Shown here piece by piece: positions 46,283-51,960 of a stretch of 64,000 nt of DNA. Position numbers and translations under genes: made by a program. The stretch is from Prochlorococcus sp. AG-355-N18 (lineage in GTDB: Bacteria > Cyanobacteriota > Cyanobacteriia > PCC-6307 > Cyanobiaceae), in assembly GCA_003278535.1 (NCBI GenBank), contig QCEG01000001.1:186001-250000 (forward strand). The letters run 5' to 3'. Within the stretch, counting starts at the first letter, position 1, and each line of letters opens with the position of its first letter. The notes below the pieces were generated by a model. The model saw nothing but the letters and a program-made list of their open reading frames with translations. It was not told the origin of the DNA and made no database searches.

Positions 46283-46867
46283 ATGAGCTTAAGAGTTGGC
46301 CAAGAAGCACCAGACTTTAGTGCTACATCAGTATATGATCAAGAGTTTAAGGAGATTACACTTTCAGGTCTAAGAGGTAAATGGGTTGTTCTATTCTTTT
46401 ACCCACTAGATTTTACATTTGTATGTCCAACTGAAATCACCGCATTTAGTGATAGATACCAAGATTTCTCGGGACTTAATACGGAAATACTTGGGGTATC
46501 AGTTGATAGCAAACACTGTCATTTGGCTTGGATACAAACCCCAAGAAATGAAGGTGGTATAGGTGATATTAACTATCCGCTAGTTTCTGACTTAAAAAGA
46601 GAAATTTGCCAGGCGTACAATGTTCTAAATGATGATGGAGAGGCTGATAGAGGTTTGTTTCTTATCAATCCTGAAGGAGTAGTTATGCATACGACTGTTA
46701 ACAAGGCTCCTGTAGGTAGAAATGTTGATGAAACGCTAAGGATTCTTCAAGGTTATCAATACGTTGCGGCAAACCCTGATGAAGTATGTCCAGCAAACTG
46801 GACTCCAGGGGAGAAAACAATGTTAGAGGACCCCAAAGGTAGTAAGGAATACTTTTCTGCGCTATAG
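46283..46867 (+). CDS. 2-Cys peroxiredoxin
   Basis: 194 aa typical 2-Cys Prx. Peroxidatic C48 in [13 protein letters not shown], resolving C169 in DEVCPANW. N-terminal [12 protein letters not shown]. It reduces H2O2 and organic peroxides using thioredoxin. Lacks a full GGLG/YF motif region that would predict strong over-oxidation sensitivity (the tail ends KEYFSAL, so YF is partly kept). Stand-alone transcript with a 300-nt leader. Confidence 0.95.
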
Positions 46868-47667: not shown

Positions 47668-49422
47668 TCAAACTTTCAACAATTTAGAAGTTGTTAATTT
47701 AAAAACTTTTTTATCTATGGTTTCTTGATTTAAAAGTATATCAACTAATTTATCTAGTAAGACTCTATTTTTTTTCAATATTTTTATTGAATTATTTAAT
47801 GAAATTTTTGAAATATTTATGATTTCATTGTCTATTCTAGTACTCGTATTTTCTGCTATAAGAGGCTTTCTTCTAAATAATCCATCTCCTAAATACATTT
47901 CATTATTATCAGGCTCCATTGAAATTGGACCAATAATTGAAAATCCATATTTTGTAACCATTTCCCTTACGATATTTGTCGCATAAGAGATATCATTTAT
48001 GGAGCATTGTGTAATTTCACCTTCACCAAATACTATCGTTTCTGCTGCTCTTCCAGCTAGAGCAATTTCAATTTTTGAAAATAATAATTTTTTTGAAATC
48101 AATCCACTAGAAATTACATCTTCGTCAGGGCATATTTTTGTATATCCACCTATAGATCCAGATCTAGGTAAAATCGTAATTTTATCAACTGATTCAATTC
48201 CATTTCTCACAGCAGATACAATTGCTCTACCTACTTCGTTATAGGCAATAATTTTTTTCATATTAGGAGAAGTAATTAATGAGCTTCTCAGGCCAATAGT
48301 AATTTTATCAAGAGCATTTTCTATATGAAGATCACTGATTATTTTAGATTCGTCTCTTGCGCAGTGAATAGCACTCTCGTTCATCAAGTTTGCAAGATCT
48401 GCTCCCGAAAATCCTACTGTTCTAGAAGCCCAATATCCTAAGTCAACTTCGCTTGAAAGTGGTTTGGAAAGTGAGTGAACTGAAAGAATTTTTTTTCTTC
48501 CATCTAAATCTGGAAGCATTACTTCAATTTTCCTATCAAATCTACCTGGTCTTAATAATGCTGCATCCAAAATATCTGGTCTATTTGTTGCTGCTAAAAC
48601 AATAATCCCAGAATTATCAGCAAAACCATCTAATTCAGTTAGAAGCTGATTAAGGGTTTGTTCTCTTTCATCATTTCCACCTCCGATCCCAGACCCTCTT
48701 TGCCTACCAATGGAATCAATTTCATCAATGAAAATTATACAAGGAGATTTTTCCTTAGCCTTAGAAAACAGGTCACGAACTCGGCTTGCTCCAACACCAA
48801 CAAAAAGTTCTACAAACTCTGATGCCGATATTGAGAGAAAAGGCACTCCTGATTCACCAGCAATTGCTTTAGCTAATAATGTTTTACCTGTTCCCGGCGG
48901 GCCTATTAGAAGAACTCCCTTAGGAACTTTTGCACCAAGATTTTCAAATTTTTTTGGTTCTTTCAAAAATGTTATTACCTCTTTTAATTCCTCAGCGGCT
49001 TCAGGGACGCCAGCTACATCATCGAATCTCGTTTCTACATCATCAATAGTTACAAATTTAGCTTGATTTTTGGTAAAACCAAAAGCTCTGGAAGCCAATT
49101 TTGATGTACTCCTCAAGATTAAGACTATAGCTAATATGAAAATCAGGAAAAGACTTATTGAAGCAAATGAATTAGCTGCTGAGGCTTCTTTTCTACTATT
49201 GTTAATACTTAGATCTACCTTATTTTCAGTGGCCTTTTCAAGGATTAATTGATCGTTGTAAAGGATAGGTATTTTAAATTTATCCCCATTTTTATAGAGA
49301 ACATCAATTTCTCTCTGCCTTGGATAGAAAAATATTGATTCTATTTTCCCCGTCTCTATATCTTCCAGAAGATCCGAATAACTTGATTTAGAATCTGAAT
49401 ATGAGAATTTTGATCTAAACAC
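47668..49422 (-). CDS. FtsH-like AAA protein without zinc-binding histidines (pseudoprotease)
   Basis: 584 aa from GTG 49422; the codon string upstream has a stop three codons back, so no N-terminal membrane helix can be added. One membrane segment lies at about 89-105. The AAA module is intact: [19 protein letters not shown] with RPGRFDRKI. The peptidase part reads YNEVGRAI where active FtsH has YHEAGHA, so N395 and R399 replace both zinc histidines, while the later acidic ligand region ([14 protein letters not shown]) persists. It should unfold or hold membrane proteins rather than cleave them, like plant FtsHi, possibly as a subunit of hetero-oligomers. Confidence 0.93.
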
Positions 49423-49553: not shown

Positions 49554-49724
49554 ATGGCTGTACCTAAGAAGAAAAAATCTAAGAGCAAAAGGAACCAAAG
49601 GCACGCTGTTTGGAAAGGAAAAGCAGCAATAGCAGCTCAAAAAGCTATATCTTTAGGTAAATCAGTTTTAACTGGGAAAGCTCAAGGATTTGTTTATCCT
49701 ATCGAAGAAGATGAAGAAGAGTAG
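49554..49724 (+). CDS. rpmF: 50S ribosomal protein L32
   Basis: 56 aa from ATG 49554 ([25 protein letters not shown], in part). The lysine-rich start and RHAVWKGK are typical of cyanobacterial L32. The C-terminal tail is acidic (EEDEEE). Divergent from the FtsH homologue. Confidence 0.96.
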
Positions 49725-50977: not shown

Positions 50978-51325
50978 ATGAAATCATGGACATGTATAGA
51001 AAATTGTGGGGCTTGTTGTAAATTCGACTTGAACGAAAGAAGCGATTTGGCTAACAAACTGAACAAAGAAGATATAGCTTTGATAGATTCGATGACGGCT
51101 AAAGACGGTTGGTGTAAAAACCTGGACAGAGAAAATAAAAAATGCTTAATTTATGAAACCAGACCACATTTTTGCCGTGTAAGTGAATTTTCAACTACAT
51201 TTAAAGGATATTTGAAATCTGGTGATAAATTTTTAATAGATTGCTGCAAACAACATATTTCATCAAATTATGGATACCAAAGTAAAGAGATGAAAACTTT
51301 TAGAATTGCTGTTTCAGGAAAATGA
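50978..51325 (+). CDS. YkgJ-family cysteine cluster protein
   Basis: 115 aa. Pattern C-x3-CGACC in MKSWTCIENCGACCKF (6-15), then WCKNLD, KCLIYETRPHFCRVSEF (about 55-71) and DCCKQH. This is the metal-chelating UPF0153/YkgJ arrangement (zinc or iron), function unknown. ATGA overlap with the first UPF0016 gene suggests co-translation; a role in metal supply fits the neighbours. Confidence 0.82.
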   Translation: MKSWTCIENCGACCKFDLNERSDLANKLNKEDIALIDSMTAKDGWCKNLDRENKKCLIYETRPHFCRVSEFSTTFKGYLKSGDKFLIDCCKQHISSNYGYQSKEMKTFRIAVSGK

Positions 51326-51648
51326 ATAGTAAATTAGAAAAAAAAGAAAACAATCTAGAAAAAAGTTTTTTTTCAATATTTATAACGACTTTTACAACAA
51401 TTTTTATTGCTGAACTTGGTGATAAAACTCAGATAGCCACATTAATGCTTTCTGCCGAATCGGGCAGGCCAATAGTTGTTTTTCTTGGAAGTTCCCTAGC
51501 ATTAATAAGCTCTAGCATAGTAGGAGTTCTTATTGGTAAATGGGTATCAAAAAAAATATCTCCTAGCAAATTTGCTTTATCTACTGGTACTTTAATGATA
51601 TTGATAAGTATATTTTTAGCTTATGAAACATTCAAAAATTATTTATAA
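51322..51648 (+). CDS. Half-size UPF0016/GDT1 family transporter, first subunit
   Basis: 108 aa, one UPF0016 repeat: IFIAELGDKTQIATLML (about 31-47) with the E-x-G-D-K-T metal-binding motif, followed by two or three helices. A 25-residue charged N-terminus precedes it. Full-size family members carry two such repeats and export Mn2+ or Ca2+. Stop is directly followed by the next gene's ATG (51649). Confidence 0.88.
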   Translation: MNSKLEKKENNLEKSFFSIFITTFTTIFIAELGDKTQIATLMLSAESGRPIVVFLGSSLALISSSIVGVLIGKWVSKKISPSKFALSTGTLMILISIFLAYETFKNYL

Positions 51649-51960
51649 ATGGTTTTAAGTTTATTACTATCAACATTTCTAACCGTTTTCATAGCTGAAT
51701 TAGGTGACAAAACTCAACTAGCTACTTTAACTATAAGTGGCACTTCAAATAAACCATTAGCAGTTTTTCTAGGATCTTCTTCAGCACTTGTTTTTGCAAG
51801 TTTACTAGGAGCTTTAACAGGTGGTTCTATTTCAAGTTTTTTACCCGAAGTAGTTCTTAAGTCAATAGCCTCCATTACATTTTTCATTATTGGTATAAGG
51901 CTTTTTATTAACTCTTTCACCATCGAAAAAGAAGAAAAAGAAGAGAAAGAAAATAATTAG
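51649..51960 (+). CDS. Half-size UPF0016/GDT1 family transporter, second subunit
   Basis: 103 aa, a second repeat: VFIAELGDKTQLATLTI (about 14-30), with a Glu/Lys-rich tail. The two genes are adjacent without any spacer, so a heterodimer rebuilding the two-repeat transporter is the natural reading. Mn2+ export is the likely function by family knowledge; half-size pairs have been described as heteromeric manganese exporters in cyanobacteria. Confidence 0.88.
   Translation: MVLSLLLSTFLTVFIAELGDKTQLATLTISGTSNKPLAVFLGSSSALVFASLLGALTGGSISSFLPEVVLKSIASITFFIIGIRLFINSFTIEKEEKEEKENN

What the first reader, a model, noticed from the sequence alone, without database searches (positions are those of the whole stretch)
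47668..49422. FtsH homologue that has lost both zinc histidines (bacterial FtsHi-like pseudoprotease)
Seen directly: YNEVGRAI replaces YHEAGHA at residues 394-401, while Walker A/B, the arginine-finger region and the rest of the peptidase fold are kept, and no nonsense or frameshift is present. The protein also begins directly with the soluble part before the second membrane helix; a stop codon three codons upstream of the GTG excludes the first helix. Plant chloroplasts have a set of such inactive FtsHi proteins with essential roles; a cyanobacterial counterpart with a shortened N-terminus may be an ATP-driven unfoldase or a regulatory subunit in mixed FtsH rings.
Basis: partly seen in the sequence, partly recalled or inferred. 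Interest (0 to 1): 0.75.

Follow-up and report, generated by a model that had tools for sequence, protein, structure and literature searches.

The report
Inactivated FtsH1 protease fixed in Prochlorococcus
One of the four membrane FtsH proteases of Prochlorococcus, a tiny and very abundant ocean photosynthesiser, lost its zinc-cutting site once, early in the history of the group, yet its ATP motor has been kept ever since, so it probably works as a non-cutting partner inside a protease ring.

Summary
Window 47668-49422 (minus strand, GTG start, 584 aa) is an FtsH with NEVGR in place of HExxH; Walker A, Walker B, pore loop, arginine fingers and third zinc ligand (D477) are kept. It is no error: 43 of 44 same-genus rows read NEVGR, one NEGGR, with silent codon variation, and the coding pattern was found in 193 of 266 genomes of the genus. 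The gene is the orthologue of cyanobacterial FtsH1 ("FtsH 4" in MED4; published MED4 primers match the orthologue exactly). Outside the genus 30 of 62 rows keep HE[IV]GH. In a tree built without the zinc columns the inactive forms make one clade (99/97), and a tree of other FtsH genes agrees (97/97): the second histidine was lost once, to Lys/Arg, before core Prochlorococcus radiated; the first eroded later. The missing first membrane helix is not linked to this, as active orthologues lack it too. One FtsHi in P. marinus SS120 was already in print; in the open papers searched I found no account of the clade-wide, single-origin loss. Most likely it is an ATP-hydrolysing, non-cutting type-B subunit paired with active FtsH3. 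Partner and activity are untested.

The parts
47668..49422 (-). ftsH1-type pseudoprotease gene (named FtsH 4 in P. marinus MED4), 584 aa, GTG start
   Evidence: ORF; TIGR01241 647 bits; orthology by tree, neighbour gene and published MED4 FtsH 4 primers, both of which match locus L029 without mismatch
49207..49383 (-). residues 14-72, FtsH_ext domain (PF06480), kept although the first membrane helix is absent
   Evidence: 26.4 bits, cut-off 25.5
49114..49170 (-). residues 85-103, the only membrane helix before the AAA domain
   Evidence: hydropathy; AlphaFold helix 77-108
48520..48915 (-). AAA domain (PF00004), residues 170-301
   Evidence: of 144 AAA-region columns (residues 128-375) at least 96% identical in 27 active rows, 118 keep that residue in at least 90% of 20 thinned inactive rows
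48880..48903 (-). Walker A GPPGTGKT, residues 174-181
48715..48732 (-). Walker B FIDEID, residues 231-236
48532..48552 (-). arginine-finger motif RPGRFDR, residues 291-297
47701..48273 (-). peptidase M41 domain (PF01434), residues 384-574, zinc site lost
48226..48240 (-). NEVGR (residues 395-399) in place of HExxH; both zinc histidines replaced
47992..47994 (-). D477, third zinc ligand, kept here
49554..49724 (+). divergent upstream neighbour, small L32-like ribosomal protein gene, found beside inactive and active orthologues
   Evidence: sequence; motif test: 26 of 31 loci (16 of 16 inactive, 10 of 15 active or outgroup); name recalled from the motif

Best explanation
The protein is the picocyanobacterial FtsH1 (type B) subunit. 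It lost its peptidase once, before core Prochlorococcus radiated, and was kept as an ATP-hydrolysing, non-cutting subunit. Most likely it alternates with the active FtsH3-type (type A) subunit in a mixed hexamer. There its AAA domain helps to pull substrates in and its empty M41 domain holds the ring together, while the FtsH3 subunits do all the cutting. Shown here: loss of the zinc site, fixation, single origin, intact ATPase motifs, purifying selection, and the intact sites of the other FtsH genes. Inferred: the absence of proteolysis, the ring partner, ATP turnover and the cellular role.
For: In the window's genus the zinc motif is NEVGR in 43 of 44 rows and NEGGR in 1, and the pattern is found in 193 of 266 genomes, 81 of 87 good ones. 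Codons vary silently at the changed residues: N is AAC in 35 rows and AAT in 9; R is AGA in 35, CGT in 7 and CGA in 2. Walker A, Walker B and the arginine-finger motif are present in 106 of 106 orthologue rows, counting FIDEVD in L050. Of 144 conserved AAA columns 118 are kept, against 22 of 53 in M41. dN/dS is 0.038 (AAA) and 0.121 (M41) in 11 genomes. There is a single origin in the gene tree without the zinc columns (99/97) and in a tree of FtsH2/3/4-type proteins (97/97). FtsH1 of Synechocystis pairs with FtsH3 in an essential complex (PMC11287208, passages). The picocyanobacterial gene is assigned to Synechocystis FtsH1 in PMC6300248 (passages), and both its MED4 FtsH 4 primers match our orthologue L029 without mismatch. 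A paper whose title reports dispensable type-B protease activity in the Arabidopsis heterocomplex appears in reference lists (title seen, content recalled; the paper is not held).
Against: No interaction, ATPase or protease data for this protein were found. MED4 FtsH 4 is not among the isoforms named as balanced at growth light (1, 2, 3) or light-induced (1, 2) in PMC6300248 (passages). The M41 domain evolves faster than the AAA domain, and the gene has longer branches than its paralogues. The published assignment to Synechocystis FtsH1 is called less obvious than the others.
Confidence: 0.58

Rival explanations
1. It forms its own hexamer or joins other proteins as a pure ATP-driven motor or unfoldase, without any protease partner, as the chloroplast FtsHi motor does.
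For: ATPase motifs intact in all 106 rows. Foldseek finds chains of the Ycf2-FtsHi motor complexes among the top PDB matches (8xqw, 8xku). Cytosolic domains of FtsH can form hexamers alone (PMC9020784, passage).
Against: Cyanobacterial FtsH1 is known to pair with FtsH3, and pairing is type-specific (passages). In the 50 Foldseek rows shown the model is closer to bacterial FtsH (42-50% identity) than to the chains of the FtsHi motor complexes (24-37%).
Confidence: 0.2
2. It is a decaying gene on the way to loss: once FtsH1 proteolysis was no longer needed, the site drifted and the rest is following slowly.
For: M41 is relaxed (22 of 53 columns kept). L084 has a very long branch and changed residues inside its ATPase motifs. 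Genome G085 (99% complete) shows only three FtsH-like matches at E up to 1e-100, all at paralogue level. dN/dS is higher than in the FtsH2- and FtsH3-like paralogues.
Against: ATPase motifs are kept in 106 of 106 rows, including L084, and the inactive form has one origin and long retention in small genomes; codons vary silently at the replaced residues. Absolute pN is close to that of FtsH2-like (0.0088 against 0.0085); the ratio is raised partly by a low pS.
Confidence: 0.15
3. It is still a protease, using an unusual metal site or a different mechanism.
For: E396 and D477 are kept in the window protein, and some sister forms keep the first histidine (HEIGK, HQIGK, HEAGR).
Against: No histidine is left in the motif in the genus (0 of 44 rows); the second site is Lys or Arg in 31 of the 32 changed rows outside it; the glutamate is also lost in several lineages (QIIGK, HQIGK, NTIGR, QQVGR, RNASK).
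Confidence: 0.05
4. Sequencing or assembly error.
For: None found.
Against: Same residues at the N and R sites in 44 of 44 rows, including one-contig genomes, and the pattern in 193 of 266 genomes.
Confidence: 0.01

Closest known systems
Cyanobacterial FtsH1 (Synechocystis slr1390), type-B partner of FtsH3; picocyanobacterial FtsH 4
   Same: Orthologous gene: tree, divergent L32-like neighbour, published isoform assignment and primers
   Different: Zinc site lost in core Prochlorococcus; first membrane helix missing in the picocyanobacterial orthologues checked
FtsHi of P. marinus SS120 (one inactive FtsH noted in PMC6460958)
   Same: Probably the same orthologue: L076, from a genome whose contig length I recall as SS120, reads NEAGK
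   Different: The passages count one FtsHi in one strain; here the whole clade, its single origin, the parent gene and the AAA constraint are shown
Plant and algal FtsHi1-5, Ycf2-FtsHi motor
   Same: AAA plus M41 fold with lost HExxH; one of them (FtsHi4) also has a single membrane helix (PMC6460958, passage)
   Different: Independent loss inside the cyanobacterial family; lower similarity than to ordinary FtsH
Arabidopsis thylakoid type A/type B FtsH heterocomplex
   Same: Precedent for a type-B subunit whose peptidase is dispensable (title only)
   Different: There the natural subunit is active (recalled); here the form without zinc site is the natural, fixed one

Membership tests
FtsH (peptidase M41, AAA) | Full-length FtsH profile above curated cut-off | tested here: met
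   TIGR01241 647 bits, cut-off 600; PF01434 151 bits, cut-off 29.9
FtsH (peptidase M41, AAA) | Zinc motif HExxH | tested here: not met
   NEVGR at 395-399
FtsH (peptidase M41, AAA) | Third zinc ligand Asp | tested here: met
   D477; lost in some sister forms
FtsH (peptidase M41, AAA) | Two N-terminal membrane helices | tested here: not met
   One helix; same in the 15 active picocyanobacterial orthologues checked
FtsH (peptidase M41, AAA) | Walker A, Walker B, arginine fingers | tested here: met
FtsHi (inactive FtsH), as a functional class | AAA and M41 domains present, HExxH absent, frame intact | tested here: met
FtsHi (inactive FtsH), as a functional class | No proteolysis in vitro | not testable with these tools
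   Inferred from the lost ligands only
Plant FtsHi lineage | Shared ancestry of the inactive form | tested here: not met
   The inactive forms nest inside active picocyanobacterial FtsH1 orthologues; no plant sequence was put in the trees, similarity only
Cyanobacterial FtsH1 (type B) | Orthology by tree, neighbour gene and published isoform | tested here: met
   no named Synechocystis sequence was compared, so the equation with slr1390 rests on PMC6300248 and PMC11262661
Cyanobacterial FtsH1 (type B) | Forms a heterohexamer with FtsH3 | not testable with these tools
   Known in Synechocystis, no data found for Prochlorococcus

The most novel reading that the evidence does not exclude
Before core Prochlorococcus radiated, an essential-type FtsH1 protease became a metal-free pseudoprotease by replacing the second zinc histidine with a Lys or Arg whose charge stands in for the zinc ion and keeps the M41 fold. 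It has since served as a built-in brake or motor subunit that halves the number of cutting sites in FtsH1/3 rings and so retunes nutrient-stress proteolysis. The position stays Lys or Arg (44 of 44 same-genus rows and 31 of 32 changed rows outside the genus) while the other ligand positions drift.
Probability: 0.22. Interest if true: 0.75.

Novelty: new member of a known kind. Interest (0 to 1): 0.5.

Why it matters
In Synechocystis the FtsH1/3 complex is essential and controls nutrient-stress regulators (PMC11287208, passages). In core Prochlorococcus the same gene has lost its zinc site in all 76 orthologue rows examined, yet is kept in very small phototroph genomes. This is a natural counterpart, placeable on a tree, of engineered protease-dead subunits. 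It makes it directly testable what a dead subunit adds to an AAA protease ring, and whether plant FtsHi are one case of a general path. It also warns that four ftsH genes in Prochlorococcus need not mean four proteases with functions parallel to those of Synechocystis, as is presumed in PMC11262661 (passage).

Tried and rejected
Kinship with plant FtsHi: rejected, because the loss nests inside active picocyanobacterial orthologues. Link between helix loss and protease loss: rejected. Sequencing error: rejected. Independent repeated losses of the second histidine: rejected in favour of one (1 change); the first histidine needs 4 changes there (lost or kept). Counted by residue inside the clade, the first position changes 7 times and the second 7 times. 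Lys/Arg constraint at the second histidine: only suggestive. Of 112 columns with 6-8 changes in the clade, 22 (this one included) are as strongly confined to two residues. The six good same-genus genomes without the pattern (G381, G401, G411, G432, G433, G490) show only matches at paralogue level. None of the genomes without the pattern is listed at 98% completeness or more (read by eye), so gaps in assembly are the simplest cause, but true loss is not excluded. The model (mean pLDDT 75, pTM 0.44) shows the M41 helices kept but is too weak for site geometry; no coordinates were inspected. Of seven published primers tried four matched a held locus exactly (MED4 FtsH 4 forward and reverse on L029, MED4 FtsH 1 on L114, MED4 FtsH 2 on L115); three matched none: the MED4 FtsH 3 primer, whose MED4 locus I had not fetched, and two MIT9313 primers, so MIT9313 itself was not identified among the loci and its FtsH 4 motif was not seen. 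Literature searches were made; beyond the single SS120 remark I found no account of inactive FtsH in Prochlorococcus, in this library of open papers only; PMC6460958, PMC8197885, PMC11287208, PMC11262661, PMC9020784, PMC6019477, PMC6300248, PMC5520375 and PMC12994072 were seen as passages, the last two without use.

Full report
What is there. The window lies on contig 1 of a 1.66-Mb assembly with 49 contigs. So the window's genus is Prochlorococcus; several same-genus contig lengths equal those I recall for the high-light strains MED4, MIT9515, AS9601, MIT9301 and MIT9312. The gene at 47668-49422 is on the minus strand, starts with GTG, and encodes 584 residues. A TAA stands three codons upstream of the GTG. 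It passes the FtsH family cut-off and the Pfam AAA, M41 and FtsH_ext cut-offs. HExxH is replaced by NEVGR at 395-399; D477 is kept.

The other FtsH genes. The genome has four FtsH genes. The other three read HEAGH, HEVGH and HEVGH. All 36 paralogue loci read (L087-L120, L122, L123) keep HExGH, also in genomes whose FtsH1 is inactive. So proteolytic FtsH is not missing from these cells.

How widespread. A coding pattern for YNExGR(A) hit 193 of 266 genomes of the genus, 81 of 87 of the good ones. Those without a hit include many partial genomes; the six good misses show only matches at paralogue level. Among 44 same-genus rows 43 read NEVGR and one NEGGR (L033 and L154 appear to be the same contig). 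Silent codon changes at these residues (N: AAC 35, AAT 9; R: AGA 35, CGT 7, CGA 2) show that the amino acids, not only the DNA, are kept.

Outside the genus. Of 62 orthologue rows, 30 read HE[IV]GH and 32 are changed: QIIGK 13, HEIGK 5, HQIGK 2, and one each of NEVGK, QQVGR, RESAR, HEAGR, NEAGK, NEIGR, RNASK, YEIGR, QIIGR, NEVGR, NTIGR and NEIGI. These rows are best matches and lineages that I chose, not a random draw. The second histidine position is Lys or Arg in 31 of the 32. The 32 rows are all the rows examined from genera g27, g34, g40, g50, g62 and g79 (genus codes). The row L076, from a genome whose contig length I recall as SS120, reads NEAGK; L056, recalled as MIT9211, reads NEVGK.

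One origin. I took 59 of the 106 orthologue rows, leaving out near-copies and some others, and dropped the five zinc-motif columns and the third-ligand column. In the resulting tree the 32 inactive rows form one side of a branch with support 99/97, in 98% of 200 bootstrap trees. The second histidine needs 1 change, the first 4, the glutamate 3, the aspartate 6. A second tree, from the FtsH2-, FtsH3- and FtsH4-type proteins of 23 genomes (all three in most, two in some), sets the same 17 genomes apart from 6 others with 97/97. The loss therefore dates to the base of this clade, after it split from lineages such as G111 that keep HEIGH. L084 is a long branch whose place is unsure.

Which FtsH it is. 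A divergently oriented L32-like neighbour was found by motif upstream in 26 of 31 loci: 16 of 16 inactive and 10 of 15 active or outgroup ones; the misses are L047, L058, L121, L156 and L159. Both MED4 qRT-PCR primers for FtsH 4 published in PMC6300248 match L029 without mismatch, and the reverse one matches the window at 48978 with two mismatches. That paper, and Table 1 of PMC11262661 (passages), equate picocyanobacterial FtsH 4 with Synechocystis FtsH1 (slr1390), the former saying that this link is less obvious than the others. No named Synechocystis sequence was compared here. In Synechocystis FtsH1 pairs with FtsH3, in a complex that is essential and controls nutrient-stress regulators (PMC11287208, passages).

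N-terminus. Hydropathy shows a single helix region before the AAA domain in the inactive rows and in 15 of 15 active picocyanobacterial orthologues checked; the three paralogues of the same genome have two. So the missing first helix is shared by active and inactive forms and cannot be part of the same event. The outgroup row L121 also showed only one helix above the threshold used, although its N-terminus looks signal-peptide-like by eye, so when the helix was lost is open. Whether the remaining helix sends the FtsH_ext domain outside was not tested.

Selection. In 11 same-genus genomes (Nei-Gojobori, 55 pairs, my own script, no significance test) dN/dS of this gene is 0.038 for AAA, 0.121 for M41 and 0.063 overall. 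For the FtsH2-like gene it is 0.011, 0.026 and 0.024; for the FtsH3-like gene 0.005, 0.011 and 0.010. The contrast with FtsH2-like is due in part to a low pS in this gene (0.127 against 0.282), since pN is nearly equal (0.0088 against 0.0085). Of 144 AAA-region columns that are at least 96% identical in 27 active rows, 118 keep that residue in at least 90% of 20 thinned inactive rows, but only 22 of 53 do so in M41; the M41 columns most changed include both histidines and the aspartate. The ATPase is thus guarded and the peptidase relaxed, although the M41 domain is still there. Its helices are predicted, with mean pLDDT 92 and 89 in the blocks 391-400 and 401-410 that carry the old site, in a model of modest overall quality (mean 75, pTM 0.44).

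Mechanism. The simplest reading is a dead type-B subunit in a ring with active FtsH3. For it: the parent gene is the FtsH1 type, whose known complex is mixed; pairing is specific to subunit type (PMC9020784, passage); [quoted passage not shown] Against it: I found nothing about partners in Prochlorococcus, and MED4 FtsH 4 transcripts are not named among the main or induced ones (PMC6300248, passages). A pure motor or slow decay remain possible.

What is known. PMC6460958 (passage), repeated in PMC8197885 (passage), states that one FtsHi was seen in P. [quoted passage not shown] The searches listed under Tried and rejected gave no further account. New here are the extent, the single origin, the identity of the parent gene, the separation of helix loss from protease loss, and the Lys/Arg preference at the second zinc position. 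The last is suggestive only: 22 of 112 comparable columns are as confined.

Noticed in passing
46283-46867 and loci: A peroxiredoxin gene (FVCPTE motif) lies downstream within the flank in 14 of 16 inactive-clade loci (the two misses have only about 1 kb of flank) and in 0 of 15 active or outgroup loci; it may simply mark the clade.
   Followed up: partly
window gene, 11 genomes: Synonymous diversity of this gene (pS 0.127) is about half that of the FtsH2- and FtsH3-like genes in the same genomes (0.282, 0.262); unexplained (recombination or a sweep?).
   Followed up: no
genome G085 (genus g49, 99% complete): Only three FtsH-like matches at E up to 1e-100, all at paralogue level, so the FtsH1-type gene may be missing there.
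   Followed up: no
51322-51648 and 51649-51960: Two tandem small membrane ORFs with ELGDKTQ motifs look like two half-size members of the UPF0016/GDT1 cation transporter family (recalled by motif).
   Followed up: no
L084 (genome G062): The most diverged inactive orthologue (Walker A GSPGTGKTH, RAGRFDK, zinc site RNASK); still in frame.
   Followed up: partly
L121 (genome G053): Outside the picocyanobacteria an FtsH1-like protein has, by eye, a signal-peptide-like N-terminus before the ext domain, which may bear on how the first helix was lost.
   Followed up: no
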